Source: Fulvivirgaceae bacterium JP3-4 (GTDB lineage: Bacteria; Bacteroidota; Bacteroidia; Cytophagales; Cyclobacteriaceae). Taken from it: a stretch of 64,000 nt of DNA. Below the pieces are notes generated by a model. That model had not been told where the DNA came from, ran no database searches, and worked only from the letters and a program-made list of their open reading frames with translations. Position numbers and translations under genes: made by a program. The DNA lies in contig JARKND010000005.1 in NCBI GenBank assembly GCA_029309925.1, positions 744,001-808,000 on the forward strand, read 5' to 3'. Shown in pieces: positions 40,883 to 60,403 of this stretch (the stretch's first letter is position 1; the number at the start of each line of letters is the position of its first letter).

Positions 40883-40942
40883 CAAGACACTAAGTTGCAC
40901 CAAGAATGCCTCGGTCGTTTCTTCGTGTTACTTAGTGTCTTG
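40883..40942. repeat. Intergenic long imperfect hairpin A
   Basis: Left arm 40883-40905 (CAAGACACTAAG then TTGCACCAAGA) pairs with right arm 40920-40942; the first 12 bp are perfect and the remaining 11 carry a few mismatches, with a 14-nt loop. Lies between the stop codons of convergent purN and the cyclase gene. No run of T follows on either strand, so it is not a standard terminator. Shares the design of the loci at 42509, 46905, 48784, 51474 and 57371. Confidence 0.8.
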
Positions 40943-40959
40943 GAGTCTTGGTGGCTAAT

Positions 40960-41622
40960 TTATGCATTTGGGATTTCCGCATAAGCGCGCACCGGAAATG
41001 TGCCCACGCCTTTCATCTTAGGAGGAACAGCGTTGAATATAAAATGCTCGGGCAGCTTGCCGAGATTACACATGTGCTCACAGATAAGAATTCCTGCACG
41101 GAGCAGAATCGTATGCGCTGGTCTTCTTTTGGTGCGTGTATCATCTATGTTGTGTGAGTCTATTCCCACAAATCCGACCTTCTGATCGCGCAGGTACGTT
41201 GCAGCTTCCTCCGTAAGGAAAGGATGATTTTCAAAATACTTTTCAGTCCGCCAGTGAAGGCTCCAGTTTGTGTTGATCAGTACCGCCTTTCCTTTCAGCG
41301 CAAGTCCTTCAAAATACTTTTTTCCAATCTCAATTCCATTTTTGAAATCCGCGTGAACAACAATCCCATCGAGATGTGCAAAGCGTTTCAATTCAACCTG
41401 GCTTAGATCATCGCCATCTTCATAGCGGTGGAAAGGGCAATCGACATACGTTCCGGTGTTGGAGACCATTTCAATTTTGCCGATCTGAAATTCTGTGCCT
41501 GCCTCGTAAAACTGTTTGGAGTCCTCACGACTTAAATAATCGCAGATGATGGGTGCCGGCAATCCTTTGTACGTTGTCATTCCATCTTCGATGGTATGAC
41601 TCAGGTCGATCAATTGTATCAT
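40960..41622 (-). CDS. Cyclase/kynurenine-formamidase-like hydrolase with altered metal motif
   Basis: 220 aa. The family fold begins LIDLSHTIEDGMTTYKGLPAP, a good match to the DLSH...P.YPG opening. The usual HxGTHxDxPxH metal motif reads SNTGTYVDCPFHRYEDG, so the first two histidines are Asn and Tyr while the Asp and last His remain. VGFVGIDSHNIDDT and HTILLRAGILICEHMCNL complete the fold. Other members hydrolyse formylkynurenine or isatin; this one probably has a different metal site or substrate. Coupled by a 1-nt overlap to the thioesterase upstream. Confidence 0.75.
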   Translation of the reverse strand: MIQLIDLSHTIEDGMTTYKGLPAPIICDYLSREDSKQFYEAGTEFQIGKIEMVSNTGTYVDCPFHRYEDGDDLSQVELKRFAHLDGIVVHADFKNGIEIGKKYFEGLALKGKAVLINTNWSLHWRTEKYFENHPFLTEEAATYLRDQKVGFVGIDSHNIDDTRTKRRPAHTILLRAGILICEHMCNLGKLPEHFIFNAVPPKMKGVGTFPVRAYAEIPNA

Positions 41623-42074
41623 TAGCTTTTTGGGGTTGGGCTGGTCATTTGGAAATCCTGGCCTTTCGGGAAGTTTTCAAATATATGTCGGATGAACTCA
41701 CCGGGCACGGCAAGCTTGCGTTTCGTAAGGTCGATCCATGCACCATCAACATTTAAGATTGCAGCAAGCGTGTTGTCTTCTTTCATGAAAAGATGGCGCA
41801 GGCTCCATCGTCCATAGTCTTCCGTTGTCTTAACAAGTTCGACTGTTATGGTAATCTTGTCTTCCAGTAAAATTTCTCGTTTGAAGATGGCCTCTTCCCT
41901 GAACAGGATCGGCCCCATGGCAAGCTCTTCCAGTTTCTTTGTGGTGAGTCCGCGGGAGCTCAGAAAATTCATCCTCATCATGGCGGCATAGTCGTAGTAA
42001 ACTGAGTGGCGCAGGTGACGATTGGCGTCAATATCAGACCATCGGATTTGTATCGCTTGTGAGAAATTATTCAT
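41622..42074 (-). CDS. Acyl-CoA thioesterase (4HBT hot-dog fold)
   Basis: 150 aa. The opening QIRWSDIDANRHLRHSVYYDYAAMMRMNFL is the YbgC/4HBT motif with the catalytic aspartate in DIDANRH and the conserved Y-x-x-Y/F helix. Strands GPILFREEAIFKREILLEDKITITVEL and RWSLRHLFMKEDNTLAAILNVDGAWIDL complete the fold. Hydrolyses acyl-CoA thioesters; chain specificity is unknown. Co-transcribed with the cyclase-like gene (TAATG overlap). Confidence 0.85.
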   Translation of the reverse strand: MNNFSQAIQIRWSDIDANRHLRHSVYYDYAAMMRMNFLSSRGLTTKKLEELAMGPILFREEAIFKREILLEDKITITVELVKTTEDYGRWSLRHLFMKEDNTLAAILNVDGAWIDLTKRKLAVPGEFIRHIFENFPKGQDFQMTSPTPKS

Positions 42075-42131
42075 AGCCTAAACATAATTAAATTTTTTGC
42101 TACTTCGTATCTTACTGCGAAACGCAATTCC

Positions 42132-42506
42132 ATGGCAACAGGTTCTTCAAAGCGTGTCGCACTTCTCGGGACAATCGCCCATTACTTAACCGCTTTTGTC
42201 GTGTTGTTAAAGGGCTTTGATAAGCTGGCCGTGCCTGGAAAGGTTGGATTTGCAGTAGTATTGATCGTTATCGGCTTAATAATCTTATTCGGGACGATTT
42301 TCCATCATCGCTTCGAGAAAGCCCTGAAGCACTTTGCCGGTATCATTGCTTTTCTCGAAGCGGTAACCATGGCCATTGTGGGCTATCTCTATATGAAAGA
42401 CGGGAAGGAGCTGATTCAATACGTTTGCTTCTTCGCTGCTGGGATGTTTCTCATTGCCGCAATCATTCACTTCACGAACCCTAAGGTGCGCACTTCGAAA
42501 CATTAG
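42132..42506 (+). CDS. Small four-helix membrane protein, unknown
   Basis: 124 aa with four hydrophobic stretches: ALLGTIAHYLTAFVVLLKGF, GFAVVLIVIGLIILFGTIF, FAGIIAFLEAVTMAIVGYLY and YVCFFAAGMFLIAAIIHF. An interhelical HHRFEKALKHF could be cytoplasmic. No known family recognised. Divergent from the thioesterase gene with a 57-nt gap, and convergent to the dioxygenase gene beyond hairpin B. Confidence 0.6.
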   Translation: MATGSSKRVALLGTIAHYLTAFVVLLKGFDKLAVPGKVGFAVVLIVIGLIILFGTIFHHRFEKALKHFAGIIAFLEAVTMAIVGYLYMKDGKELIQYVCFFAAGMFLIAAIIHFTNPKVRTSKH

Positions 42507-42508
42507 TT

Positions 42509-42592
42509 TTTCAACGCGGAGACGCTAAGGTGCGGAGTTCGCGGAGGAATTTTTGTTGGCGAACTGCCCATGTTCGCGTCTTTGCGTTGAAA
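42509..42592. repeat. Intergenic long imperfect hairpin B, octamer-like
   Basis: Left arm 42509-42541 and right arm 42559-42592 are inverted copies of about 33 nt with several mismatches; both keep TTTCAACGC and AGTTCGC. The left arm reads in 8-nt steps (ACGCGGAG, ACGCTAAG, GTGCGGAG, TTCGCGGA). Begins 2 nt after the stop codon of the membrane protein gene and ends 7 nt before the convergent dioxygenase stop. Confidence 0.8.
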
Positions 42593-42599
42593 GCCTTTG

Positions 42600-43793
42600 C
42601 TACGGAGTGTTGATCTCATTAAACCCTTCGGGCTGTGGATCAGTCCAGCTCATTGGATAATTCTTGTCAACAAACTCCAGCGAATCCGTTGTGAGGTACA
42701 ATGGCCTGAAGGTGTCGATCATCACCGCGAGTTCATGCGTTTCCTTTGCTCCGATGCTTTTCTCGACAGTCCCGGGATGCGGCCCATGTGGCAGACCACC
42801 GGGATGCAGCGTGAACGATCCTCTCTCGATACCGCGCCTGCTCATAAAATTTCCTTCAGCATAATACAGCACTTCATCGCTGTCGATGTTGCTGTGGTTG
42901 TATGGCGCGGGGATGGCTTGCGGATGGTAATCGAACAGTCGCGGCACAAAAGAGCAGATCACAAAATTATGCGCCTGGAAAGTCTGGTGCACCGGTGGGG
43001 GCTGATGAATGCGTCCCGTGATCGGTTCGAAGTCGTGAATGGAAAACGCATAGGGCCACAGGAAACCGTCCCAGCCGATCAGGTCGAGCGGGCTGTAATC
43101 GTAAACATACTGGTGGAGATAACCTTGCTTTTTGATCTTCATCAGGAATTCTCCCTTTGAGCGATCGGTGATCAGCTCGTGCGGAGGACGAATATCGCGC
43201 TCACAGTAGGGAGAATGCTCCAGCAACTGGCCAAGCTGATTGCGATAGCGCTTTACTGTTTCAACCGGGGACGCTGATTCGATGATAAGCAATCGGAGCG
43301 GGCCTTCTTCAAACTCAAGTTTGTAGATGACAGTTCGCGGAATCACCACATAGTCACCCTGGCGGATCTCAAGCTTGCCGAACTGCGAGATCAATACACC
43401 TTTCCCATCATGGATGAAAAGTACTTCGTCACCTTCGGCATTCTTGTAGAAGTAATCCATTTTTCTTTTTTCCGGTGAGCATATTGAAATGGAGCAGTCG
43501 CTGTTGGCAAGCAATACTTTTCGGGCAGAAAGGTAATCGTTGCCCGTTGTCTTCACCTTTGAAGTATTCAGGTGTGTCTGACGGAGGTCGTATTTTTCAA
43601 TTCGCTTTGGCCCATATGGAACAGCATCTTTCACTGCTTTGATCCGTGTAGGTGGATTGATATGATAGAGGTTTGAGTAGATCCCTGAAAAACCTTCAGA
43701 GCTCACGAGTTCCTCTTTATATAGAGATCCATCCGGCTGGCGAAATTGCGTGTGGCGCTTGGGTGGAATATTTCCGAGTCGGTGATAATACAT
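42600..43793 (-). CDS. hmgA: Homogentisate 1,2-dioxygenase
   Basis: 397 aa. Opens the ring of homogentisate in tyrosine and phenylalanine catabolism, using non-heme Fe(II). The cupin-like sequence includes YYHRLGNIPPKRHTQFRQPDG at the N-terminus, FLWPYAFSIHDFEPITGRIHQPPPVHQTF, APYNHSNIDSDEVLYYAEGNF with the Fe-binding His and Glu, and FTLHPGGLPHGPHPG with the second His. The family is usually about 430 aa in eukaryotes and shorter in bacteria. The start ATG at 43793 gives the conserved beginning. Alone on its strand. Confidence 0.95.
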   Translation of the reverse strand: MYYHRLGNIPPKRHTQFRQPDGSLYKEELVSSEGFSGIYSNLYHINPPTRIKAVKDAVPYGPKRIEKYDLRQTHLNTSKVKTTGNDYLSARKVLLANSDCSISICSPEKRKMDYFYKNAEGDEVLFIHDGKGVLISQFGKLEIRQGDYVVIPRTVIYKLEFEEGPLRLLIIESASPVETVKRYRNQLGQLLEHSPYCERDIRPPHELITDRSKGEFLMKIKKQGYLHQYVYDYSPLDLIGWDGFLWPYAFSIHDFEPITGRIHQPPPVHQTFQAHNFVICSFVPRLFDYHPQAIPAPYNHSNIDSDEVLYYAEGNFMSRRGIERGSFTLHPGGLPHGPHPGTVEKSIGAKETHELAVMIDTFRPLYLTTDSLEFVDKNYPMSWTDPQPEGFNEINTP

Positions 43794-43812
43794 ATGGGTA
43801 AACTTTACCTGT

Positions 43813-43820
43813 CAAAAATA
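43813..43820 (-). promoter_or_regulatory. -7 box for homogentisate dioxygenase
   Basis: Minus-strand TATTTTTG, matching TAnnTTTG, about 19 nt upstream of the ATG at 43793. No -33 element at the right distance was found. Confidence 0.35.
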
Positions 43821-43882
43821 GTCATTTCGGCAGAGGCTTGTATCCCTTCCAAAGTCTCTTCTGCGAAATCGACTTTTCCGAA

Positions 43883-43918
43883 ATAAAAAATCCCGGCTGC
43901 TGGTTATCGGCCGGGATT
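43883..43918 (-). terminator. Rho-independent terminator of the protease gene
   Basis: AATCCCGGC (43889-43897) pairs with GCCGGGATT (43910-43918), a 9-bp GC-rich stem with a 12-nt loop. Read on the minus strand it ends in a run of T at 43883-43890. Lies 23 nt after the stop codon of the protease gene and upstream of the dioxygenase promoter. Confidence 0.88.
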
Positions 43919-43941
43919 AGTAAATATTATTCTTGAGGGCG

Positions 43942-45555
43942 TTACATTTTGCTGCGGTCGAGTTCCGGTATTTTATCGAACACCTTCAACGCCTGCTGGA
44001 ACACTTCGTTGGTCTCGTTGTATACCGGATAGAATCCTTCGTTGCCCCAGATCTTTCTTGCAATCTGTGCTTTCACGTGAATTTTGAAAAGATCTTTCTT
44101 TTTGTTGAGCTCCTTGTAGTCTGGTTTCACTTTGTTTCGTTCACCAACCCTCACGAGTTCCTTCAGCATTTCCTCGGTCACGGTGAACTTCGTGAGGAAG
44201 TTCTTGAAGCCTTTTTCCTCGAGTTCTTTCTTGTGGTCTTCTGCGAACTTAAAGGTGTACTCCTGGATGGCAGTTGAAGTAAAGAGTTCATTTAAGTAGT
44301 GGCTGTTAAGCGTGGTGTCGAGTGGCACGAAATAGTCAGGCATGATTCCGCCACCGCCATACACCGTGCGACCGTTGGCTGTCGAGTACTTCAGCGAATC
44401 GTTGAACTGGATGCTGTCAGCGTGGAAGAATTCGCCATGGTTGTATCGGCTGATGATATCACGTGAATATTCATCACCGTCTTCGTATGGCTTCTGGATC
44501 GAGCGTCCGCTTGGTGTGTAGTACCGCGAGATTGTCAGGCGCAATTCCGAGCCATCCGTGAGATCGAATGGTGACTGCACAAGCCCCTTTCCAAAACTTC
44601 TTCTTCCGACCAGCAGCGCGCGGTCGTTATCTTGTAGCGCTCCGGCAAGAATTTCAGATGCAGATGCGCTTCCTTCATTAACCAATACTACGAGGTCACC
44701 TGTTTCAAAGCTGCCCTTGTTCGTTGATACCGCCTCTGCATTGTATTTTCTTTCTTTTCCTTTTTGAGAAACAATCACTTTCCCGGACGAAAGGAATTCA
44801 TCGGCCATTTCAATCGCCATGTTCATGTAGCCACCACCGTTGCCCTGAAGATCGAGCACAAGCTTTTTCATCCCTTTCTCACGCAGCTTCTTCAGTGCTT
44901 CCTGGAATTCATCATAAGTCGTTGCGGAAAAGCGGTTCACTTTGATGTAGCCTGTGACATCATCAACCATATAAGCAACATCTACCGAGTATTGCGGGAT
45001 TTTATCACGGACAATCTTGTATTCAATTTCCTTGCTGCCGCGGGCGATCGTAACCTTTACCTCGGTTCCGCGCGGTCCCTTTAAGGCTTTCATTACGTCA
45101 GCAGTGCTCACGCCAACGCCTGCCATATTTTTTTCATCGACTTTAATGATCTTATCGCCCGACTGTATTCCCAGCATTTCTGAGGGGCCGCCACTCAAGG
45201 GCGTAACTACCACGATCGTGTCGTTGAAAATGTTGAACTCTACACCAATTCCGTCAAAGTTTCCCCTGAGATCTTCGTTAGCTGCGACTTTGTCGGTTGC
45301 GGGGATGTAAGCGGAGTGCGGATCAAGTTTCTGAAGGATGTGCGCAATGGCGTCATCTACCAGCCGCCCGGTGTTTACTGTGTCAACATATTCTTCCTTA
45401 ATCTGTGTGAGGATCTCACGGAATTTCTGGACGTCTTTGTTAACATCTGCAGAGGGCTTTCCGGTGTTAAGCGTGGCTCCCACAAACACGCCAGCCGCTA
45501 ACCCCAGGCATAAAACAATCGGTAAACGGATTTGATATTTCGAATTCTGACTCAT
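43942..45555 (-). CDS. C-terminal processing peptidase (S41, CtpA/Prc-like)
   Basis: About 537 aa. A signal or membrane-anchor segment near 10-28 puts the enzyme in the periplasm. A PDZ domain at about 95-180 (GIGVEFNIFNDTIVVVTPLSGGPSEML) is followed by the S41 core: LVLDLQGNGGG, the catalytic serine in NEGSASASEILAGAL (about residue 296), and the catalytic lysine in VGRRSFGKGLVQ about 27 residues later. The C-terminal 170 residues are a helical extension typical of Bacteroidota tail proteases. The ATG at 45555 is used; a GTG two codons upstream is in frame. A terminator follows. Confidence 0.94.
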   Translation of the reverse strand: MSQNSKYQIRLPIVLCLGLAAGVFVGATLNTGKPSADVNKDVQKFREILTQIKEEYVDTVNTGRLVDDAIAHILQKLDPHSAYIPATDKVAANEDLRGNFDGIGVEFNIFNDTIVVVTPLSGGPSEMLGIQSGDKIIKVDEKNMAGVGVSTADVMKALKGPRGTEVKVTIARGSKEIEYKIVRDKIPQYSVDVAYMVDDVTGYIKVNRFSATTYDEFQEALKKLREKGMKKLVLDLQGNGGGYMNMAIEMADEFLSSGKVIVSQKGKERKYNAEAVSTNKGSFETGDLVVLVNEGSASASEILAGALQDNDRALLVGRRSFGKGLVQSPFDLTDGSELRLTISRYYTPSGRSIQKPYEDGDEYSRDIISRYNHGEFFHADSIQFNDSLKYSTANGRTVYGGGGIMPDYFVPLDTTLNSHYLNELFTSTAIQEYTFKFAEDHKKELEEKGFKNFLTKFTVTEEMLKELVRVGERNKVKPDYKELNKKKDLFKIHVKAQIARKIWGNEGFYPVYNETNEVFQQALKVFDKIPELDRSKM

Positions 45556-45645
45556 AATCACAACAACAATAACAGTATTGACTCTAACGAAGTGCTAAAA
45601 TAATTGTTGGCTGGATAAACTAACGGATTTTTTATAGGGTCGGTT

Positions 45646-45660
45646 CCGCAACAGTTGCGG
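45646..45660. promoter_or_regulatory. Palindrome between divergent genes
   Basis: CCGCAAC-A-GTTGCGG, a near-perfect palindrome of 15 nt in the 177-nt divergent gap between the protease and the hemerythrin genes. It could be an operator for either gene; a short hairpin is also possible. No known regulator motif recognised. Confidence 0.3.
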
Positions 45661-45732
45661 TGCTTTTTGCAATTCTTTATGATCCTGCCTTTTTCCTTTG
45701 AATCAGCCTTTTTCTATATTTACTGAATCTCC

Positions 45733-46488
45733 ATGAACAAAATAGCGCTTAAAGACAGACGTATCGCAGATCTCGTAGACCAGAACTACGTGCACGCTTA
45801 TGTGCTTTTTTATTTTGGGATCAAATTCTACGAGTACTCAGAATTCACGCTCGAACAGGTGTGCGAGAAACGCGGCCTTAAAACCGAGCAGGTAGTGAAG
45901 GAACTGGAATCGCCAACGTATCTGCAGGAAGCTGAACTTCCACTGGTGAGTTATCCCATCGATCTGATCATCGAGTACCTCAAGCATTCGCATTTTATTT
46001 TTATCAAGCACAAACTTCCATACATCGCGCGCCTTGTTGAAACATTCCGCGCACACAATGAAAGTTTCAACGCCATCGAGAAAGATCTGAAAATTGTGTT
46101 TCCGCTGTTTGTTGAAGATTTCATCGAGCATATCTATGAAGAGGAGGACACTTTGTTCCACTTCATTCTTGCGCTCGAGAAAGCATCGAAGTCATCGTAT
46201 CCTCACGGGAAGCTGTATTATCTTCTCGAAAAGAATTCAGTCCACAAATTTGCAATGGAGCACGAAGCCCACGATGATGAGATGGAAGGTATCCGCAAGA
46301 TCACGCGTAACTACAGCCTTGATGCAAATGCTCCGCTGCACGTCAAGGTTATCTATAATGAGCTGAAGGCATTCGAGAAAAGCCTCATCACTCACGCCCG
46401 CATTGAAAATGAGATTTTGTTTCCAAAAGCAATGGCCATGGAAAACAAAGTTCGCAAAGCTTTCTTCGAAAAAGCTGCCTTCAATTAA
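45733..46488 (+). CDS. Hemerythrin-domain protein, RIC/ScdA-like with altered N-domain
   Basis: 251 aa. The first ~60 residues (YVHAYVLFYFGIKFYEYSEFTLEQVCEKRGL) follow the ScdA_N/DUF542 outline, but the usual CC pair is FYEY. The hemerythrin domain shows its di-iron ligands in YLKHSHFIFIKHKLPYI, FIEHIYEEEDTLFHFI, FAMEHEAHDDEMEGI and HARIENEILFPKAMAM. RIC proteins repair iron-sulfur clusters or respond to nitric oxide. The loss of the N-terminal cysteines suggests a changed role. Its last base overlaps the next start (TAATG). Confidence 0.88.
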   Translation: MNKIALKDRRIADLVDQNYVHAYVLFYFGIKFYEYSEFTLEQVCEKRGLKTEQVVKELESPTYLQEAELPLVSYPIDLIIEYLKHSHFIFIKHKLPYIARLVETFRAHNESFNAIEKDLKIVFPLFVEDFIEHIYEEEDTLFHFILALEKASKSSYPHGKLYYLLEKNSVHKFAMEHEAHDDEMEGIRKITRNYSLDANAPLHVKVIYNELKAFEKSLITHARIENEILFPKAMAMENKVRKAFFEKAAFN

Positions 46489-46904: not shown

Positions 46905-47043
46905 GGTAATGGGTAATGGGTAATCGACAACAGCGGACGCGCACCTAATTGCAGGCAAAACGATCTTGAGTTTTTGTGCACCCTGCCATTACCCATCACC
47001 CATTACCCATCACCCATCACCCATCACCTATCGCCCATTACCC
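46905..47043. repeat. Heptamer array C with inverted partner
   Basis: Immediately after the ruvX stop codon, GGTAATG repeats nearly three times (46905-46924). Eighty bases on, the complementary heptamer CAT(T/C)ACC runs eight times (46987-47042) with single-base variants: CATTACC, CATCACC, CATTACC, CATCACC x3, TATCGCC and CATTACC. The left arm can pair with several registers of the right array. The array ends 30 nt before the def promoter's -7 box. Confidence 0.9.
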
Positions 47044-47049
47044 AGATGC

Positions 47050-47080
47050 TTTACGCATTCAAAATCCTGTGCTACCTTTG
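47050..47080 (+). promoter_or_regulatory. Promoter ending 5 nt before the def start codon
   Basis: TTTA at 47050-47053, a 19-nt spacer and TACCTTTG at 47073-47080. The ATG at 47086 is only 5 nt further, so the def transcript would be leaderless or almost so. Confidence 0.5.
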
Positions 47081-47085
47081 CACCC

Positions 47086-47640: not shown

Positions 47641-47643
47641 CGG

Positions 47644-48786
47644 ATGAAAATTCAATCGCGTCTTCCTGATGTAGGCACTTCAATTTTTTCGGTGATGTCA
47701 AAGATGGCGCTCGAACACGGTGCTATCAACCTATCCCAGGGTTTTCCGGATTTTTCGATCGACAAAACGATCATCGATCTCGTTCATCAGTACATGCTGG
47801 AAGGAAACAACCAGTATGCACCGATGCCAGGTGTTCCTTTACTCCGCCAGGAGATCGCCCGCGTCATCAAGGAAACGTATAATCATACTGTTGATCCGGA
47901 AACAGAAATTACTGTTACTGCGGGAGCAACGGAAGGCATATTCGCAGCCATATCCGCCTTTATTAATCCCGGTGACGAGGTTATCCTCTTCGACCCGGCC
48001 TACGACAGCTACGATCCCGCCATCCGGCTGAATGGTGGTGTTCCGGTGCAGATCAACCTCACCTATCCGGATTTCTCCATCGACTGGGATCTTGTGAAAA
48101 AGAAGATTACAAAGAAGACGCGGATGATCATGGTCAACACGCCTCACAACCCGAGTGGATCCGTGCTAAAGCCAAACGATCTCCTTGAACTTGAAAAAAT
48201 AGCGCTCATCAATAACATCCTCGTTTTAAGTGATGAGGTATACGAACGACTCATCTTCGATGGACTCCAGCATCAGAGCGCGTTGAGGTCGCCCGGGCTG
48301 GCATCGCAAAGCATCAGCGTTTATTCATTTGGTAAAACGTTTCACGCCACGGGCTGGAAAGCCGGCTATGTAGTGGCACCGCAGCACCTTACTGCAGAGA
48401 TCCGCAAGACACACCAGTTCATCGTTTTTGCAGTAAACACTCCGGTGCAATTCGCGCTCGCGGACTACCTGAAAAATCCCGAGCATTATCTTGGACTGGG
48501 ACGGTTCTACGAAGCAAAACGCAATTTTTTCCTTGAACACATAAAGGGCTCGTCCCTCGAACCCCTGCCATGTCATGGATCATATTTCCAACTGATGTCC
48601 TATCGCTCGATTTCCGGCAAGCCAGACGTGGAAATGGCAGAAGAACTGACGAAAAAATTCAAAGTGGCATCTATACCCGTGTCAGTTTTCTACAAAGACA
48701 GGACGGACAATCGTTTGCTGAGGTTTTGCTTCGCGAAAAAAGAGGAAACGTTGCTAAAGGCCTGTGAGATTCTGCGAAGTTTATAG
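47644..48786 (+). CDS. Methionine/glutamine-type aminotransferase (YbdL-like)
   Basis: 380 aa class I/II PLP enzyme. INLSQGFPDFSIDKTIIDLV, NQYAPMPGVPLLRQEI, TVTAGATEGIFAAISAF, NTPHNPSGSVL, VLSDEVYERLIFDG and VYSFGKTFHATGWKAGY (PLP lysine in SFGKTFH) match YbdL, which transaminates methionine with a keto acid or glutamine. The neighbour at 49036 is an omega-amidase-like nitrilase, which would remove the ketoglutaramate formed when glutamine is the donor. That pairing is the glutamine transaminase K/omega-amidase pathway and the reason for the specific call. Confidence 0.9.
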   Translation: MKIQSRLPDVGTSIFSVMSKMALEHGAINLSQGFPDFSIDKTIIDLVHQYMLEGNNQYAPMPGVPLLRQEIARVIKETYNHTVDPETEITVTAGATEGIFAAISAFINPGDEVILFDPAYDSYDPAIRLNGGVPVQINLTYPDFSIDWDLVKKKITKKTRMIMVNTPHNPSGSVLKPNDLLELEKIALINNILVLSDEVYERLIFDGLQHQSALRSPGLASQSISVYSFGKTFHATGWKAGYVVAPQHLTAEIRKTHQFIVFAVNTPVQFALADYLKNPEHYLGLGRFYEAKRNFFLEHIKGSSLEPLPCHGSYFQLMSYRSISGKPDVEMAEELTKKFKVASIPVSVFYKDRTDNRLLRFCFAKKEETLLKACEILRSL

Positions 48787-48917
48787 TAGGCAGTAGGCAC
48801 AATTGCAGTAGGCAAGGCTTGCAATTGTTTTTTTTCTTATTCCGAATGCTATTCTCAATGAGTCGGACAATAGAGAAAACAGGGTTTTGCCAACTGCCAA
48901 TTGCCTACTGCTTACTA
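48784..48917. repeat. Heptamer hairpin D (AGTAGGC family)
   Basis: Left arm 48784-48815 includes the TAG stop codon of the aminotransferase gene and steps in AGTAGGC units; right arm 48887-48917 is its inverted copy over about 31 nt with few mismatches. The loop is 71 nt. Shares its unit with locus F at 51474; the two flank the omega-amidase and purH genes. A degenerate trace of the unit (CTACTAATTGTCTACT) continues to about 48975. Confidence 0.88.
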
Positions 48918-49869: not shown

Positions 49870-49875
49870 GCTGGA

Positions 49876-49910
49876 CTCCGAACACGAAACACCGAACCCG
49901 GAACCCGAAC
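49876..49910 (+). repeat. Heptamer array E (five units)
   Basis: Five consecutive 7-nt units CTCCGAA, CACGAAA, CACCGAA, CCCGGAA and CCCGAAC, then degenerate traces (CTAAAAT, ATAACCT). Begins 6 nt after the omega-amidase stop codon and ends before the purH start. No inverted partner seen. Confidence 0.75.
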
Positions 49911-49946
49911 CTAAAATATAACCTAACACAAACCTGCCGCTGCCCA

Positions 49947-51473: not shown

Positions 51474-51602
51474 TAGTAGGCAGTAGGCAATTGGCAATAG
51501 GCAATCCCAGTTTGACGATTTTTGAACCATTGGCCAATGGTCGAGTAAAAAAACAAAGCTAACGCTACGCATTGCCTACTGCATCTTGCCTACTGCCTAC
51601 TT
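51474..51602. repeat. Heptamer hairpin F (AGTAGGC family) with central palindrome
   Basis: Left arm 51474-51505 begins at the base after the purH stop and repeats AGTAGGC. Right arm 51571-51602 is an inverted copy with about four mismatches in thirty. The loop contains CCATTGGCCAATGG (51527-51540), a perfect 14-nt palindrome. Same unit as locus D. Confidence 0.9.
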
Positions 51603-51605
51603 CTC

Positions 51606-52864: not shown

Positions 52865-52868
52865 TTCC

Positions 52869-54220: not shown

Positions 54221-54261
54221 TTTTTTAAACTTATTCGTTGGCCTGAAGCAACAAGTGTTCT

Positions 54262-56094
54262 ATGAACGAAGGCAGAAGGGAAATTATTCAGATCGCATTT
54301 GCATTGATAGGAATTATCTTTCTTATCAAACTATTCTCTATTCAGGTTGTTGACCGCAAATACAAAGACCTGGCAAACAGCAATGCGGTGCTTGAAGTGG
54401 TTGATCCGCCTGTGCGTGGTCTTATCTACGATCGCAATGGTAAACTAATTGTCTACAATACACCCGAGTTTGACCTGCTCATTCTGAAGAAAGAAGTAAA
54501 AGACCTTGACAGTGCAGCTTTCTGTGACGTATTCTCCATGACCATGCCTGAACTCCGCGAAAAGTTTAAGGAGCTGAGAAGGAAAAAAGAATACTCACCC
54601 CGCAAGCCAACGGTATTCCTCACACAGTTGTCAAACCTCGACTTTGCAAAAATCCAGGACCGCATCGATGAGTTTCCGGGATTTATGATCCAGGCAAGGA
54701 GTACCAGGGCATACACGAAGAATGTGATGGCGAATGCCCTCGGTTATGTAAGTGAGATCTCAAAGACCCAGCTTGAACGCGACCAGAGTAAATTCTATCG
54801 TCAGGGCGAAGGTATTGGCCAAAGCGGAATTGAAGCTTACTACGAACAGTACCTGCGAGGGCGAAGCGGAAAACGTTTCCTGCTTCGCGATGTTGACGGA
54901 ATCGTGAAGGGCTCTTTCGCCAATGGCGAATACGATACGCTTTCCGTACCGGGTCAGAATCTTACCACCACCATAGACCTTGACCTGCAGGAATATGGCG
55001 AGTTCCTCATGAAAGGAAAAGCGGGCAGTATCATCTGCATCGAGCCTGCCACTGGTGAGGTACTCTCCATGGTTTCGGGGCCATCATACGATCCTACTTT
55101 GCTCACCGGAAAAAACTATAGTGATAATTTCGTGCTGATCAACAGCGACACCAACAAGCCACTGTTCAACAGGCCGTTGATGGCGCAATATCGTCCCGGC
55201 TCGATTTTTAAGATCGCGCAGGCGATGGTGGCATTGCAGGAAGGTGTGATCACGCCCGACACACGCTTTAAGTGCGATCGCTCCATCATCGGTTGTCACG
55301 GCCCGCACAGCAATGAAGATCTTCGCGGTGCCATCACAAACTCATGCAACCCTTACTTCTACCAGGTACTGAAGCGCATGCTGAACAAAGGCAAGTCTGA
55401 CAATCCGTTTGATGACACCCGCATAGGACTCGAAGAATGGAGCAAACACATTTCAAGTTTTGGATTTGGCAAAAGACTTGGAATCGATCTGCCGAACGAA
55501 AAGAACGGCCTCGTGCCAAGCCCCGCGTTTTATGACAGGGCCTACACCGGCAGACCATGGAAGTTTTCAAATATTTATTCGATAGCGATTGGCGAAGGTG
55601 AAAATCTTGTTGTGCCGTTGCAGATGGCAAACTTTGCCGCGACCGTTGCCAACAAAGGATATTACATCACACCTCACCTGGTGAAGTCCATAGGAAATTC
55701 AGGCAAGCCTCTGCCGGAATACGAAGAGAAACACTACACGACCATCGATCCGCAAAATTTTGAAATCGCTGCAGATGCGATGGAGGAAGTGGTACGCTCT
55801 GGAACGGGACAATATCGCGCGAGTCTTAAAGACATCGTAGTCTGCGGTAAAACAGGATCGGTGCAGAACGATGCAAAGACGATGAAGAACGCGAGACCCG
55901 ATCACTCAGTTTTCATCGCGTATGCGCCTAAGGAAAATCCGAAAATTGCGGTGTCGGTCTATGTGGAGTGGTCAGGGCAGGGAGCAAGAGCAGCAGCATC
56001 TATCGCCAGCCTGATGATTGAAAAATATTTGTACGGAAATACGAAGAGACCGCACATTCAGGATTACGTTTTAAAAGGGGACTTTTTGGATTGA
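54262..56094 (+). CDS. mrdA: Penicillin-binding protein 2 (transpeptidase)
   Basis: 610 aa. Crosslinks lateral-wall peptidoglycan in the periplasm. One N-terminal span (8-28), the pedestal domain with VRGLIYDRNGKLIVYN, then the transpeptidase domain: S314-x-x-K317 in YRPGSIFKIAQAM, S361-x-N363 in ITNSCNPYF and K530-T-G in VCGKTGSVQN. The Ser-x-x-Lys, SxN and KTG spacing is normal. Overlaps the rodA start by 4 nt (TTGA). Confidence 0.97.
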   Translation: MNEGRREIIQIAFALIGIIFLIKLFSIQVVDRKYKDLANSNAVLEVVDPPVRGLIYDRNGKLIVYNTPEFDLLILKKEVKDLDSAAFCDVFSMTMPELREKFKELRRKKEYSPRKPTVFLTQLSNLDFAKIQDRIDEFPGFMIQARSTRAYTKNVMANALGYVSEISKTQLERDQSKFYRQGEGIGQSGIEAYYEQYLRGRSGKRFLLRDVDGIVKGSFANGEYDTLSVPGQNLTTTIDLDLQEYGEFLMKGKAGSIICIEPATGEVLSMVSGPSYDPTLLTGKNYSDNFVLINSDTNKPLFNRPLMAQYRPGSIFKIAQAMVALQEGVITPDTRFKCDRSIIGCHGPHSNEDLRGAITNSCNPYFYQVLKRMLNKGKSDNPFDDTRIGLEEWSKHISSFGFGKRLGIDLPNEKNGLVPSPAFYDRAYTGRPWKFSNIYSIAIGEGENLVVPLQMANFAATVANKGYYITPHLVKSIGNSGKPLPEYEEKHYTTIDPQNFEIAADAMEEVVRSGTGQYRASLKDIVVCGKTGSVQNDAKTMKNARPDHSVFIAYAPKENPKIAVSVYVEWSGQGARAAASIASLMIEKYLYGNTKRPHIQDYVLKGDFLD

Positions 56095-57368
56095 GACAGG
56101 AAGAAAAAATTATCACAACCAAGATCGACTGGGTGACAGTCGTGCTTTACATGGCCATTGTTTTTTTTGGCTGGTTGAACATTTTTGCCGTTACCTATGA
56201 TGCTGAAGCCGAGCAAAGCATTTTTGATTTGTCGTTGAACTCCGGGCGTCAGCTCATGTTCATCGTAACTTCAGGTATTTTGATTGCTGCCATTCTTATT
56301 ATTGATCGTCAGTTTTACGAAACGTTTGCCTACATCATTTATGGCTTGATCCTTTTTCTGTTGCTTCTCGTACCGATCATCGGAAAGGAAGTGGGTGGAA
56401 ACAAGGCGTGGTTAGGTATCGGTTCTTTTGGTGTTCAGCCTTCTGAGTTTGCAAAATTTGCGACTGCCCTCGTTGTTGCCAAGGTGATCGGCTCAATCGG
56501 ATTCAAAATGGACAACCTGAGAAATCAGGTGATCCTGTTTGCCATCATCGGTGCTCCGATCCTGCTGATCCTTCTTCAGAAAGATTACGGAACTGCAATG
56601 GTGTTTCTGATCTTCTCTGTTGTATTCTATCGCGAGGGGATGTCCCCTTTTCTCATCCTTCTCGGACTTGGCGCTGCAGCGCTGTTCATCCTTACTTTAT
56701 TGGTTGAAAACAACTGGATTCTCTTCGGAACGATCGGTGCTGTCTGGGCGCTGATGATGTACATGAACCGGAGAAAGAAAATAAAAACCCTCGTGACGAT
56801 TACTGCGGGTGCCGCGATTCTTGCATTTTTCATCGGCAGCGTGGAAGCTGTGTTCAACCTGCTGGAGGATCACCATCAGCGAAGAATTGTTTCAATGCTG
56901 AACCCTGATGCCGACCCGCTTGGCTACGGCTGGAATGTAACACAGTCAAAGATCGCGATCGGCAGCGGTGGATTTTTCGGGAAGGGATTTTTAGAGGGAA
57001 CGCAAACCAAATTCGACTTCGTGCCGGAGCAAAGCACCGACTTTATATTCTGTACCATTGGCGAAGAGCATGGATGGATCGGTAGTCTGATGGTGGTGAC
57101 ACTCTTCATGGCTCTGCTCATGCGCATTATCTTCCTTGCAGAACGACAGAAGAACCGGTTCGCGCGCGTGTATGGCTATTCCGTTGCATGCATTTTATTC
57201 TTCCACTTTGCAGTCAATATCGGCATGACCATCGGCCTGTTTCCGGTCATCGGTATTCCACTTCCGTTCTTCAGCTATGGAGGTTCATCGTTATGGGGCT
57301 TCACTGTATTGCTGTTTCTCTTCCTGAAGCTTGATGCGCACCGGATGCAGGTGTTACAGAGACTTTAA
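56091..57368 (+). CDS. rodA: Rod-shape glycosyltransferase RodA
   Basis: 425 aa SEDS-family polymerase of lateral-wall glycan, partner of PBP2. About ten hydrophobic segments; LKVPIIGKEVGG-type loop VPIIGKEVGGNKAWLGIG, FGVQPSEFAKFATALVVAKVI, LLQKDYGTAMVFLIFSVVF, the long extracellular loop GWNVTQSKIAIGSGGFFGKGFLEGTQTKFDFVPEQSTDFIF with the catalytic aspartate, and PVIGIPLPFFSYGGSS. Start is TTG at 56091, in the PBP2 stop overlap. Last gene of the operon; array G follows 2 nt later. Confidence 0.95.
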   Translation: MRQEEKIITTKIDWVTVVLYMAIVFFGWLNIFAVTYDAEAEQSIFDLSLNSGRQLMFIVTSGILIAAILIIDRQFYETFAYIIYGLILFLLLLVPIIGKEVGGNKAWLGIGSFGVQPSEFAKFATALVVAKVIGSIGFKMDNLRNQVILFAIIGAPILLILLQKDYGTAMVFLIFSVVFYREGMSPFLILLGLGAAALFILTLLVENNWILFGTIGAVWALMMYMNRRKKIKTLVTITAGAAILAFFIGSVEAVFNLLEDHHQRRIVSMLNPDADPLGYGWNVTQSKIAIGSGGFFGKGFLEGTQTKFDFVPEQSTDFIFCTIGEEHGWIGSLMVVTLFMALLMRIIFLAERQKNRFARVYGYSVACILFFHFAVNIGMTIGLFPVIGIPLPFFSYGGSSLWGFTVLLFLFLKLDAHRMQVLQRL

Positions 57369-57370
57369 GG

Positions 57371-57539
57371 AATTAGGAAATTAGGCATTAGGCATTAGTT
57401 TGGGTGCAACCAACGATGGTTCGGGCTATTGAGACGTTTGAATTGCTGATGTGTTCCTATCGTGGGGACCGATGTCTGCACACAAGAGACCTAATGCCTA
57501 ATGCCTAATGCCTAATGCCCAATGCCTAATGCCTCCTCC
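57371..57539. repeat. Heptamer array G with inverted partner (TTAGGCA family)
   Basis: Left arm 57371-57398 has TTAGGCA twice and a half-unit; it begins 2 nt after the rodA stop. The right array 57491-57532 is six units of CTAATGC (one CCAATGC). The arms are complementary and separated by about 90 nt. Lies between convergent rodA and the hypothetical gene at 57587. Confidence 0.9.
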
Positions 57540-57586
57540 GATCGAAGATCACGTCTCAAACCAAAAACGAAAGTATTCGGAGGGTT

Positions 57587-58645
57587 TTATGCAAAACGTT
57601 GCTCCACCATTTCCATAAATTCATGGAACTCCTTGCTGTCGCGGTCCCAGTTGGACGAGTGGCGTTCAAGGTAACGAAGCGCGGAAGTCATGTCCGGGAG
57701 TTGATCGATGTCTTCGATGGCGCGGCTGAATGATTCAAAGTCTCCATAAAAAAGGACCTTGGTGAACATAAATTTCTGATTGATAGAAAGACTGTCTTTG
57801 ATACGACTGATCTTTTTGAGGTTATCCATGAGCGCCTGTTTACCAGCGGTGGTGCGCTCGTTGATCGTTGATTCTTTCTTTACTTCCTGCACAACTACTT
57901 TTTTCTGTTCTACGATCACTTTGTCTTCGGCATACGTGGTGCGCGTTTCGCTCATTTCAGATTTGATCTCTTGTTGTGGAGCGGATGGCCTGACGACTTC
58001 CTGCGGCACGGGTTTCGTGATGTAGAAGGTTGCAGGATCAAGGGTATGGACCTCTGAGAATTTCTCGATGTATCCATCCAGATCTTCCGGAGTGAAATTC
58101 ACTTCTTCCAGGATCTGATCGAGGATGGCAAATGCTTCGTTGCCAGGAATCTGGTCAACCTTCCGCTGTTCGAGCGTGTGCAACATTCTCTCGATGGGCG
58201 CCTTGTTGATCTTAATGTATTTGATCTCATCCCTGAGTGATGCGACTTCCAGTTTATTGTCTTTACCGGTAACCAGCATCGAAAAGAAATCGTAAGGATC
58301 GAAGATGGCGAGCAGTGTCTGGCTAACCGCCTTCTTCAGGAGCGGAGAGAAATGTGCACGGTCGATCAGGATGTGGTTCGAAACCACCGACATGTAATTC
58401 GCGAGTGCTTCCTTTACCTCAGGATTTTCATTGTCGAAGTAGGAGCTTTTTTGTTTGCGTGTTTCTTCCTTCCAGGCCTTAAAAAGTTCCCGGATCACAA
58501 ACAGGTTTACCTGTTGAATGGAAGACAGCGCAAGGATTTGCTGGCCGTTGATCTTTTCCTTGTTCGCAAAAAAATTCTTCAGAAGTTTTTCAGCGTAGGC
58601 ATCGCCATACACTGCAATCGCTTCGAGACTAATCTTCTCATCCAT
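57587..58645 (-). CDS. Hypothetical protein with helical repeats and a low-complexity middle
   Basis: 352 aa; not recognised. The first 200 residues look helical and include DRAHFSPLLKKAVSQTLLAIFDPYDFFSMLV. A Lys/Glu/Val-rich linker (about 220-275: EQKKVVVQEVKKE) follows. The C-terminal segment SLSINQKFMFTKVLFYGDFESFSRAIEDIDQLPDMTSALRYLE resembles a short C-terminal motif I recall in several unrelated Bacteroidota proteins. No signal peptide. Convergent to rodA and divergent from the ferredoxin gene. Perhaps a cytoplasmic adaptor; no function asserted. Confidence 0.6.
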   Translation of the reverse strand: MDEKISLEAIAVYGDAYAEKLLKNFFANKEKINGQQILALSSIQQVNLFVIRELFKAWKEETRKQKSSYFDNENPEVKEALANYMSVVSNHILIDRAHFSPLLKKAVSQTLLAIFDPYDFFSMLVTGKDNKLEVASLRDEIKYIKINKAPIERMLHTLEQRKVDQIPGNEAFAILDQILEEVNFTPEDLDGYIEKFSEVHTLDPATFYITKPVPQEVVRPSAPQQEIKSEMSETRTTYAEDKVIVEQKKVVVQEVKKESTINERTTAGKQALMDNLKKISRIKDSLSINQKFMFTKVLFYGDFESFSRAIEDIDQLPDMTSALRYLERHSSNWDRDSKEFHEFMEMVEQRFA

Positions 58646-58729
58646 GTTGATCGTATCGGATTAATGCCTTTAATTGGCGGTTATAAAGTTAATTGTTATT
58701 GGCGCATTTCCACACCTAAAGCCCGAAAC

Positions 58730-59050
58730 ATGTCCACGATTCTGATCGCTAACTGGAAAAATAAAACCCTTTCGGTTAACGATCCAAATGTTTCCCTGCT
58801 GCGTCTTTTCCAGAACCACCGGCTGGACTGGATGCATGCCTGCGGAGGAAAGGGCAGATGCACCACATGTAAAGTGATAGTCCTGGAAGGAATGGAAAAC
58901 TTCAGCCAGGTAACACCTGCGGAAAACCGCTATCGGGCCATGGGCGCTCTGCAGTCAAACGAACGATTATCATGCCAGGTGAGAGTGCTGGGGGACGTTA
59001 CCGTGGAAGTTCCGGAGGAATACAAGCTTCCTCATATCACCTATTCCTGA
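58730..59050 (+). CDS. 2Fe-2S ferredoxin
   Basis: 106 aa from the ATG at 58730. The cluster cysteines form ACGGKGRCTTCKVIV (CX5CX2C) with the fourth in LSCQVRV, the arrangement of plant-type/adrenodoxin-like ferredoxins. The start is chosen because the frame extends upstream to 58352 through the coding region of the gene on the other strand, with no family resemblance there. Partner redox enzyme not identifiable. Confidence 0.92.
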   Translation: MSTILIANWKNKTLSVNDPNVSLLRLFQNHRLDWMHACGGKGRCTTCKVIVLEGMENFSQVTPAENRYRAMGALQSNERLSCQVRVLGDVTVEVPEEYKLPHITYS

Positions 59051-59086
59051 CGTCTATCACACTTAAGAATTTTTGTATTTTGCGAT

Positions 59087-59683
59087 ATGTTTATCGAGCC
59101 GCAATTTGGAGGAAAGTCGCGCCAGGAAAGAGCCGGATGGATTGAAGTGATTTGCGGCTGTATGTTTTCCGGAAAAACGGAAGAGCTGATCAGGCGGCTG
59201 AACCGCGCGATCATTGCCAAACAGAAAGTTGAAATATTCAAGCCTGTGATCGACAACCGTTATCACGATACCAATGTGGTGTCGCACAACGAGAACGCTA
59301 TCCGGTCAACGCCTGTGAATTTCGCAAACGACATCCTGCTACTGGCTGGTGACAGCGATGTAGTCGGCATTGACGAAGCTCAATTTTTTGATGAGGCGAT
59401 CGTTGAAGTATGTAACACCCTTGCCAACCAGGGAAAACGCGTGATCGTTGCCGGCCTCGACATGGATTTTGAAGGCAAACCTTTCGGACCCATGCCATTC
59501 CTTCTTGCGGTTGCCGAATTCGTAACCAAAGTTCACGCCATCTGTGCACAGACCGGTGAGCTTGCTTCATTCTCGTATCGACTCATCTCAAACGATAACC
59601 AGGTGATGCTTGGTGAGCTTGGTCAATATGAAGCGCGAAGCCGCAAGGCCTTCTTTGATGGAATGAAAGATCGTAAGAAATAG
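59087..59683 (+). CDS. tdk: Thymidine kinase
   Basis: 198 aa type II thymidine kinase. Walker A GCMFSGKTEELIRRL, the DEAQFFDEA Walker B region, and the lid segment FRLI-type SFSYRLISNDNQVMLGELGQYEARSRKAF are clear. The usual four zinc cysteines are reduced (HAICAQTGELASFSYR has one), a variant seen in this phylum's enzymes. A -7-like TATTTTG ends close to the ATG. Follows the ferredoxin gene by 36 nt. Confidence 0.95.
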   Translation: MFIEPQFGGKSRQERAGWIEVICGCMFSGKTEELIRRLNRAIIAKQKVEIFKPVIDNRYHDTNVVSHNENAIRSTPVNFANDILLLAGDSDVVGIDEAQFFDEAIVEVCNTLANQGKRVIVAGLDMDFEGKPFGPMPFLLAVAEFVTKVHAICAQTGELASFSYRLISNDNQVMLGELGQYEARSRKAFFDGMKDRKK

Positions 59684-59707
59684 CGCGATCAAACGGAGTG
59701 TAATCCG

Positions 59708-60376
59708 ATGATTCACAAAACACGAGGAATTGTTTTCAGATTCACCCGCTATGGCGAGACCTCTATCATTGTCACAATTTTTACTGAGGCCTTCGGACTG
59801 CAGAGTTATATTGTAAATGGTGTTCGCAGTAAAACTTCAAAAAACAAAATTGCACTCTATCAGCCGTTAACTTTGCTCAATCTTGTCGTGTATCATCGCG
59901 AACATGCCAACCTCGAACGCATCAAAGAAATACATTGCTTCCATCCCTACCAGTCACTGACAGTTGATATCAAAAAGTCAACGATCGCCATGTTCATCAC
60001 GGAGCTGCTGAACAAAACTGTAAAGGAGGAAAGTGCTGCACCAACTCTATTTGAGTTTCTTGTCGATGCGCTGATCAGGATGGATACGCTTGCGAAAAAC
60101 GAAGAGAATGCCCATCTGATCTTCCTGATAAAATTGAGTCGATACCTTGGCTTCGGCCCGCAGTTCGCCAATGAAGTACTGGGCGGCAGGGTGGCGGACG
60201 AAAAAACTGAAATCGTACTGCAGCAGATGCTGAGTGCTGATTTTGAAAATGAACTGGTGATTACTAAGGAACAGAGAAGAAATTTACTGGAACTCCTACT
60301 GAAGTTTTACCAGGAGCATCTGGAGAATTTTGGAGAGCTGAAGTCCGTGCAGGTATTAAGAGACGTGCTTTCGTAG
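59708..60376 (+). CDS. recO: DNA repair protein RecO
   Basis: 222 aa. Loads RecA onto SSB-coated DNA with RecR. OB-fold start KTRGIVFRFTRYGETSIIVTIFTEAFGLQSYIVNGVRSKTS, then HFYQPLTLLNLVVYHRE-type segment (ALYQPLTLLNLVVYHREHANLERI), followed by a helical region (FITELLNKTVKEE). The Zn-binding cysteines of E. coli type are absent, as is common in this phylum. 24 nt after tdk. Confidence 0.9.
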   Translation: MIHKTRGIVFRFTRYGETSIIVTIFTEAFGLQSYIVNGVRSKTSKNKIALYQPLTLLNLVVYHREHANLERIKEIHCFHPYQSLTVDIKKSTIAMFITELLNKTVKEESAAPTLFEFLVDALIRMDTLAKNEENAHLIFLIKLSRYLGFGPQFANEVLGGRVADEKTEIVLQQMLSADFENELVITKEQRRNLLELLLKFYQEHLENFGELKSVQVLRDVLS

Positions 60377-60383
60377 TACAAAG

Positions 60384-60403
60384 CCTTGAACCTTGAACCT
60401 GAA
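60384..60403. repeat. Short heptamer array H
   Basis: CCTTGAA, CCTTGAA, CCTGAAT in 20 nt between the stop codons of convergent recO and the response regulator. Two clean units plus a decayed one; resembles the CCGAA-type units of array E. Only a weak inverted match (TTCAAG) nearby. Confidence 0.5.

What the first reader, a model, noticed from the sequence alone, without database searches (positions are those of the whole stretch)
40883..60403. Eight intergenic short-period repeat loci, each starting at a stop codon, with different units but one design
Loci A (40883), B (42509), C (46905), D (48784), E (49876), F (51474), G (57371) and H (60384) all lie in intergenic gaps, and each begins between the stop codon itself and 7 nt after it, always behind a plus-strand gene. 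Most step in 7-nt units (A and B look closer to 8). A, B, C, D, F and G carry a second, inverted arm, so the RNA could fold into a long imperfect hairpin. The units differ: AGTAGGC (D, F), TTAGGCA (G), GGTAATG (C), CCGAAC-like (E), CCTTGAA (H), CAAGACACTAAG (A), ACGCGGAG (B). None was seen in the first 40 kb. Heptanucleotide STRR repeats of cyanobacteria are the closest known analogue. Targeting to stop codons, unit diversity and inverted pairing together suggest either a mobile-repeat class or a 3'-end RNA element. Function is inference.
Basis: partly seen in the sequence, partly recalled or inferred. Interest (0 to 1): 0.78.

Follow-up and report, generated by a model that had tools for sequence, protein, structure and literature searches.

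The report
Stop-codon-hugging seven-base repeat hairpin modules
This bacterium carries many small DNA hairpins built from repeated seven-letter words, often parked right behind the ends of genes; the words differ almost entirely from those of a sister species although the design is the same, which suggests a fast-changing, little-studied kind of spreading repeat rather than a fixed gene switch.

Summary
Period 7 stands out: 84 intergenic against 2 coding arrays in 864 kb. In the window, C, D, F and G are solid; H and E are marginal; A and B are hairpins with weak or no significant periodicity. Arrays follow genes of both strands. In convergent gaps 16 of 23 clusters abut a stop within 8 nt (8.5 expected). 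About half have an inverted partner (32 of 65).

Array-bearing gaps are longer than array-free orthologous gaps (median +73 to +105 nt). Occupancy is nearly independent between two congeners. Units are shared across many loci within a genome but almost never between the two, and do not come from the local ancestral sequence. Terminators are not replaced. No target-site duplication and no clear enzyme were found.

Best reading: a dispersed, foldback-like DNA repeat, U-U-U / unrelated loop / U'-U'-U', with genome-specific heptamer families. Xanthomonas GGGAATC repeats (PMC4692102) show the same placement and polarity with one unit, so this is a new variant of a known kind.

The parts
40883..40895 (+). 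Locus A, stop-side arm (CAAGACACTAAGT), behind a formyltransferase gene
   Evidence: sequence; period-8 p 0.013, inverted repeat 0/300 shuffles; Pfam PF00551
40930..40942 (-). Locus A, inverted arm
   Evidence: sequence
42512..42547 (+). Locus B, stop-side arm (ACGCGGAG-like)
   Evidence: sequence; periodicity not significant p 0.24, inverted repeat 0/300
42560..42591 (-). Locus B, inverted arm
   Evidence: sequence
46905..46924 (+). Locus C, arm 1, (GGTAATG)n starting directly after the stop of a RuvX-family gene
   Evidence: TRF, sequence, Pfam RuvX
46986..47044 (-). Locus C, arm 2, (CCATCAC/CCATTAC)n
   Evidence: TRF 8.4 copies
48785..48799 (+). Locus D, arm 1, (AGTAGGC)n overlapping the TAG stop of an aminotransferase gene; by eye a hairpin with a T8 tail follows between the arms
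   Evidence: TRF, sequence, Pfam
48888..48916 (-). Locus D, arm 2
   Evidence: TRF
49878..49911 (+). Locus E, single CCGAAC-like array behind a carbon-nitrogen hydrolase gene; no inverted arm
   Evidence: TRF; p 0.02, inverted p 0.56
51474..51505 (+). Locus F, arm 1, directly after the purH stop
   Evidence: TRF, sequence, Pfam
51573..51601 (-). Locus F, arm 2
   Evidence: TRF; fold -54.0 kcal/mol for 143 nt starting with the stop codon
51645..51671 (+). Remnant of the purH 3' hairpin that lies close behind the stop in both congeners G001 and G002; here about 170 nt from the stop, beyond module F
   Evidence: alignment by eye
57371..57398 (+). Locus G, arm 1, (ATTAGGC)n behind a FtsW/RodA-family gene, convergent gap
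   Evidence: TRF, sequence, Pfam
57399..57489 (.). Locus G loop, found once in the whole genome
   Evidence: only the self match in 5.81 Mb at E<=0.001
57490..57534 (-). Locus G, arm 2, (CCTAATG)n
   Evidence: TRF 6.4 copies, 94%
60384..60400 (+). Locus H, single short (CCTTGAA)n array behind a RecO-family gene, convergent gap
   Evidence: TRF; p 0.007; Pfam RecO

Best explanation
These loci belong to a dispersed, non-coding DNA repeat class of this Chryseolinea-like Cytophagales genome. The typical element is a module of mostly 60-165 bp: several head-to-tail copies of a heptamer U, then a loop (median 66 nt, unrelated from copy to copy), then inverted copies U'. Single-arm forms are also common. 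Modules arise at new intergenic places by addition of DNA, not by expansion of local sequence. They settle directly behind stop codons more often than chance, where little is disturbed. Within one genome heptamer families spread to many places (up to 34 arms per family); between species the set of families is replaced. So architecture and period are kept while the words change, much like foldback elements of animals or a within-genome population of REPIN-like units. SHOWN: period 7, placement, inverted arms in about half, extra length in filled gaps, genome-specific units, no local seed. INFERRED: that spreading is a copying process acting in trans through hairpin or single-strand intermediates; that stop-codon hugging reflects tolerance, possibly plus a target preference; that the elements are mainly selfish or neutral.
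For: Period 7 dominates: 84 intergenic vs 2 coding arrays in 864 kb; of the other periods from 4 to 13 the next is period 8 with 13, and 14, 21 and 28 are harmonics; Markov-resampled intergenic DNA gave 0 (first 464 kb). Stop hugging: 34 of 62 clusters within 16 nt of a stop, permutation mean 19.4, maximum 28 in 1000; convergent gaps 16 of 23 within 8 nt, uniform mean 8.5, 0 of 2000 draws as high; in G002 18 of 31 within 16 nt. Inverted partners: 32 of 65 in the top 3 against other loci, about 3 expected; 52 inverted modules among 84 neighbouring arm pairs. Gain by addition: median +94.5 nt where only G000 of the G000/G002 pair has the array (20 gaps, 2 of them shorter), +67 to +183 nt where only G002 has it (10 gaps), against a median absolute difference of 31 nt where neither has. 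Of 15 gaps with an array in G000 only of three congeners, 10 are 50-206 nt longer than the longer relative. Locus F sits between the purH stop and the hairpin that lies close behind the stop in both congeners. Units: identical consensus in 2.8% (G000) and 4.4% (G002) of within-genome locus pairs; 0.000 to three decimals of 3204 between-genome pairs; random heptamers 0.0008. No local seed: own-unit match to the empty site 4.93 vs 4.93 for units of other loci, 43 comparisons. Loops unrelated: 1 non-self hit for 35 loops of at least 25 nt; G loop unique.
Against: No enzyme identified. Y1 transposase hits occur in all 13 genomes tested, with strong ones also in array-poor genomes such as G003, G012, G017 and G019; but the array-poor congener G001 has only weak hits (at most 36 bits) while G000 has five of 63-103 bits and G002 one of 87, so a link is not excluded. 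RVT_1 does not track arrays (G002 none, G000 one below cut-off). No target-site duplication: flank repeats of 5 nt or more in 2 of 52, 2.6 expected. Loops are not copied, so whole-module transposition is not shown. Of the 15 three-way gaps 2 are shorter than a relative's gap and 3 more gain less than 40 nt. Unit positions vary in a family-specific way, which could also mean a binding constraint. 24 of 84 neighbouring arm pairs are more alike in direct than in inverted orientation. About half of the clusters have no convincing inverted partner. Arms more than 60 nt from a stop show no polarity (13:19). At one gap filled in both (C,45) the best unit match between G000 and G002 is 7 of 7.
Confidence: 0.6

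Rival explanations
1. Ordinary long simple-sequence repeats made by DNA-polymerase slippage at seven nucleotides in unconstrained gaps, with hairpin arms made by template switching; no dispersal.
For: Heptanucleotides were the commonest long-SSR class in most genomes of an earlier survey, with polymerase slippage proposed (reported in PMC4679880, passages). Match rate falls slowly with lag (0.837 to 0.769 from lag 7 to 35 in G000 arrays of at least 42 nt), as for stepwise copying. Single arrays without inverted partner are common.
Against: Units are shared by many loci within a genome and hardly between congeners. Empty sites contain no more of the unit than of other units. A gap of 9 nt in both relatives is 108 nt here, and some filled gaps gained a long unrelated loop as well (e.g. 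C,35 and B,6).
Confidence: 0.17
2. A 3'-end RNA element: the hairpin stabilises or ends the mRNA of the upstream gene.
For: 34 of 62 clusters lie within 16 nt of a stop; 25 of 68 convergent, 39 of 251 tandem and 11 of 95 divergent gaps carry arrays (lower threshold). Hairpins fold well in part: 26 of 62 with z below -3 vs 11 of 62 array-free gaps.
Against: Canonical terminators are equally common with and without arrays in convergent (14 of 25 vs 23 of 43) and tandem gaps (10 of 39 vs 49 of 212); in divergent gaps they are commoner with arrays (5 of 11 vs 15 of 84). Median fold z is -2.1 vs -1.6 for array-free gaps. Occupancy is independent between congeners (both 6, G000 only 20, G002 only 10, neither 63, Fisher p 0.35). 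Arrays sit in short same-strand gaps. Divergent gaps carry modules of the same form.
Confidence: 0.15
3. Multi-site binding array for a sequence-specific DNA- or RNA-binding protein (nucleoid or regulatory), with fixed core positions and free positions.
For: Variation is concentrated in certain phases (dispersion 1.53 vs 0.72 expected; 25 of 62 arrays p<0.05). Some families have invariant positions, e.g. AGTCCAC in G002 with three positions at 1.00 in 48-59 units.
Against: Dozens of unrelated units in one genome would need many proteins. Family membership was chosen by similarity to a reference, which inflates invariance. A within-genome population of units sharing recent ancestry gives the same picture.
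Confidence: 0.08

Closest known systems
GGGAATC / GGGGA(C/T)T heptameric repeats of Xanthomonas and Nostoc (Rehm et al. 2015, PMC4692102; passages and section 13 read)
   Same: Period 7, intergenic; 70 and 75 inverted pairs in two Xanthomonas genomes; many within 0-50 bp of stop codons or overlapping them; repeats lie nearer to the 5' ORF whatever its orientation.
   Different: There one G-rich unit able to form G-quadruplexes; here dozens of mostly G-tract-free units per genome, replaced between congeners.
STRR heptanucleotides of cyanobacteria (recalled; a Calothrix case is mentioned in PMC4692102)
   Same: Tandem heptanucleotides in intergenic DNA.
   Different: Inverted modules and unit turnover at orthologous sites are not known to me for STRRs; not tested.
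REPINs (Bertels and Rainey 2011, PMC3116915; abstract read)
   Same: Short dispersed units in inverted doublets forming hairpins, plus singlets; within-genome spread.
   Different: REPINs are built of a conserved palindromic REP and tied to a RAYT; here the units are heptamers in tandem, loops are unrelated and no clear RAYT link was found.
Foldback / Galileo elements of Drosophila (recalled; PMC3573991 seen in a search listing only)
   Same: Inverted arms with internal short repeats around a variable middle.
   Different: Far smaller, no transposase known, no target-site duplication found.
TAACTGA repeats of Beggiatoaceae and some Bacteroidetes (PMC4679880; abstract, passages, section 12 read)
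   Same: Intergenic direct heptamer repeats, also in five Bacteroidetes.
   Different: Single unit, in the main genome mostly just in front of start codons, with one indirect repeat only.

Membership tests
Xanthomonas/Nostoc heptameric repeats | 7-nt period in intergenic DNA | tested here: met
   84 intergenic vs 2 coding
Xanthomonas/Nostoc heptameric repeats | close to or overlapping stop codons | tested here: met
Xanthomonas/Nostoc heptameric repeats | unit strand points away from the nearest gene end | tested here: met
   63:5 at stops and 18:3 at starts within 16 nt, but 13:19 beyond 60 nt of stops; start-side arms are partly second arms of the same modules, so not independent
Xanthomonas/Nostoc heptameric repeats | G-tract unit able to form a G-quadruplex | tested here: not met
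   by eye, 3 of the 45 G000 units printed (of 46) hold GGG or CCC
Xanthomonas/Nostoc heptameric repeats | one dominant unit per genome | tested here: not met
   46 distinct consensus units in 139 arrays of G000, 25 in 53 of G002
REP/REPIN | conserved palindromic REP sequence shared by copies | tested here: not met
   copies share heptamers only; loops unrelated
REP/REPIN | cognate RAYT gene | tested here: inconclusive
   RAYT-like ORFs exist in G000 and G002 and not strongly in G001, but also in other array-poor genomes
MITE | terminal inverted repeats | tested here: met
   in the loose sense of inverted arrays, 52 modules
MITE | target-site duplication | tested here: not met
   2 of 52 vs 2.6 expected
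MITE | copies share their body | tested here: not met
   1 non-self hit for 35 loops
Foldback elements | inverted arms of short tandem repeats, variable loop | tested here: met
Foldback elements | target-site duplication | tested here: not met
Foldback elements | a transposase acting on the arms | tested here: inconclusive
   only PF01797 and PF00078 were searched
Intrinsic terminators | hairpin with U-tract standing in for the gene's terminator | tested here: not met
   terminator share equal with and without arrays in convergent and tandem gaps
Slippage SSR | unit derived from local sequence | tested here: not met
Cyanobacterial STRR | known STRR unit sequences | not tested
   unit names recalled only

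The most novel reading that the evidence does not exclude
A bacterial repeat class in which only the architecture (7-nt period, head-to-head arms, seat behind stop codons) is inherited over time, while the sequence itself is exchanged wholesale between species by an as yet unknown copying machinery that seeds heptamer families into new gaps across the genome.
Probability: 0.3. Interest if true: 0.85.

Novelty: new variant of a known kind. Interest (0 to 1): 0.56.

Why it matters
If right, it links scattered reports of heptamer repeats (Xanthomonas, Nostoc, Beggiatoaceae) into one architecture that outlives its own sequence. It also gives a genus in which gain and loss can be followed site by site. 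That makes two open questions testable: why seven, and what copies these units into new places. It cautions against reading each such hairpin as a terminator or regulatory element of the gene it follows.

Tried and rejected
Terminator role: rejected as the main role (in divergent gaps terminator-like sites are commoner with arrays, 5 of 11 vs 15 of 84). RNA-fold z-scores: weak discriminator, median -2.1 vs -1.6 in array-free gaps. Stop codon as in-phase seed: 3 of 70 arms match 3/3, 2.0 expected from other phases; mean matches 1.16 vs 0.89, not supported. Local ancestral seed: rejected. Target-site duplication: not found. Dispersed loops: not found. Loops as decayed arrays: lag-7 match 0.292 against 0.247-0.281 at other lags from 3 to 15, at most a trace. 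RAYT: no clear link; reverse transcriptase: no link. Conserved sites: occupancy independent of G002 (p 0.35, 99 of 140 orthologous gaps counted, the rest too short); for G001 the table is 5 both, 19 G000 only, 0 G001 only, 57 neither (p 0.0017), but units at those five sites differ (best similarity 4-6 of 7). Purine skew of the sense arm: weak (50:23). Limits: gene calls are my own hexamer caller without annotation; the G000 sample is 1.164 Mb of 5.81 Mb; ten other relatives have only 40 kb each; detection thresholds differ between calls (score 9 to 11).
Full report
What is there. The window is G000:C5:744001-808000 of a 5.81-Mb genome in 5 contigs. By its purH gene the nearest named relatives are Chryseolinea lacunae, Dawidia soli, Parachryseolinea silvisoli and a MAG labelled Chitinophaga (81-82% identity). 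TRF reports period-7 arrays at C, D, E, F, G and H. Against 300 Markov shuffles per gap, C, D, F and G are beyond doubt, H and E marginal, A weak (period 8), and B not significantly periodic; A, B, C, D, F and G have inverted repeats that no shuffle reached, E has none, H was not testable. Seven of the eight upstream genes have Pfam hits, mostly housekeeping: formyltransferase, RuvX, aminotransferase, carbon-nitrogen hydrolase, PurH, FtsW/RodA family, RecO.

Genome-wide. I sampled 40 stretches of 20 kb plus the window (864 kb). With my own gene caller, period 7 gave 84 intergenic and 2 coding arrays, period 8 gave 13 and 1, and the other periods from 4 to 13 gave at most 4 intergenic; periods 14, 21 and 28 show the harmonics. 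Markov-resampled intergenic DNA gave 0 for period 7 in the first 464 kb. Of 66 clusters 65 are intergenic. Of 62 with both flanks known, 23 lie in convergent, 31 in tandem and 8 in divergent gaps; there are 68, 251 and 95 such gaps of at least 30 nt. 34 of 62 lie within 16 nt of a stop (permutation mean 19.4, maximum 28 in 1000). In convergent gaps, where no promoter should push arrays away, 16 of 23 have an end within 8 nt of a stop, against 8.5 for uniform placement and 0 of 2000 draws as high. In tandem gaps 21 of 31 are nearer the stop than the start. So the seat behind stop codons is real, but not exclusive and not tied to one strand.

Arms. For 32 of 65 clusters the strongest array finds an inverted partner within 250 nt of itself that is better than near all but at most two other loci (about 3 expected); direct partners reach the top three in 13. 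Joining neighbouring arms in G000 and G002 gave 52 inverted modules of 84 pairs, 59-279 bp long, with loops of 6-204 nt (median 66). 24 of the 84 pairs are more alike in direct orientation. Loops of at least 25 nt are unrelated to the sampled DNA elsewhere (1 non-self hit for 35), and the loop of G occurs once in the whole genome.

Polarity. Similar units near stops read the same way in 173 pairs and the opposite way in 49. The same outward form holds at starts (18:3 within 16 nt) as at stops (63:5); more than 60 nt from a stop it is lost (13:19). Start-side arms are often the second arm of a module, so this is partly built in; but six modules in divergent gaps have, by eye, the same U...U' layout. 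Rehm et al. report a like rule for Xanthomonas and Anabaena: intergenic repeats lie nearer to the 5' ORF whatever its orientation (PMC4692102, section 13).

Comparison with congeners. G000 and G002 have 9.9 and 9.3 intergenic clusters per 100 kb, G001 0.9. Ten other relatives have 0 to 2.5 (40 kb each). 80 loci around purH (1.50 Mb, named records) hold 31 intergenic clusters, 11 within 16 nt of a stop; a few of the 31 are simple A-rich runs. Of 99 counted orthologous G000-G002 gaps (140 in all), 6 have arrays in both, 20 in G000 only, 10 in G002 only, 63 in neither (p 0.35); G000-only gaps are a median 94.5 nt longer (2 of 20 shorter), G002-only gaps 67-183 nt longer. Of 15 gaps filled in G000 but not in G002 or G001 (72 three-way gaps counted of 96), 10 exceed the longer relative by 50-206 nt; examples are 108 vs 9 and 9 nt, 220 vs -4 (overlapping gene calls) and 14, and 152 vs 62 and 63; two are shorter than one relative's gap and three gain 8-39 nt. 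At purH the module stands between the stop codon and a hairpin that lies close behind the stop in both congeners.

Units. G000 has 46 distinct consensus units in 139 arrays, G002 25 in 53. Identical units occur in 2.8% and 4.4% of within-genome locus pairs and in 0.000 (three decimals) of 3204 between-genome pairs; random heptamers give 0.0008. At the six gaps filled in both G000 and G002, the best similarity is 4 or 5 of 7 in five and 7 of 7 in one. The units do not come from the local ancestral sequence. Variation falls on certain phases, and some families have invariant positions; since families were selected by similarity, this is suggestive only.

Mechanism. Shown: addition of DNA in most filled gaps, sharing of unit families across a genome, exchange of families between species. 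Inferred: copying in trans, most simply through a hairpin or single-strand intermediate that seeds a few heptamers and is then extended. Not found: target-site duplication or a link to reverse transcriptases. Y1 transposases: strong hits in array-rich G000 and G002 and not in array-poor G001, but also in other array-poor genomes, so no clear link. Terminators are as common in convergent and tandem gaps with arrays as without, so the module does not replace them.

Novelty. Searches of the open library found the Xanthomonas/Nostoc and TAACTGA papers as the nearest, and in their listings nothing on unit-diverse, genome-specific heptamer modules in Cytophagales. The library lacks most subscription journals, so this is a limited statement. 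I rate it a new variant of a known kind.

Noticed in passing
L258:1430-2840 (G000 around C1:2831962-2832306): A RAYT-like Y1 transposase gene (103 bits) next to a cluster of palindromic repeats with cores such as CGTCCCTGACGGGAC; by eye a separate repeat family from the heptamer modules, although heptamer arrays flank the cluster.
   Followed up: partly
window 1-32000: AT-richer stretch (GC 0.39-0.42 vs 0.46-0.48) with a long minus-strand run of genes, including NeuB and glycosyltransferase proteins: probably a surface polysaccharide island, free of intergenic heptamer arrays.
   Followed up: partly
L017:17601-18448: A larger tandem repeat that contains heptamer arrays (AGCTACA-like) together with non-heptamer DNA.
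   Followed up: no
L143 (G002), behind the ortholog of the RecO-family gene: At the site of locus H, G002 has a palindrome around AACCCTTTGAGGGTT instead of a heptamer array.
   Followed up: no
L144 (G002), behind the aminotransferase ortholog: At the site of locus D, G002 has a different hairpin with CGCAGATTTACGCAGATTT arms.
   Followed up: no
L190:289-362, L189:9809-9969, L025:8081-8263: A separate period-8 family (GTGTTAAT / AACACATT and similar); two of the three loci have an inverted partner near the top rank.
   Followed up: partly
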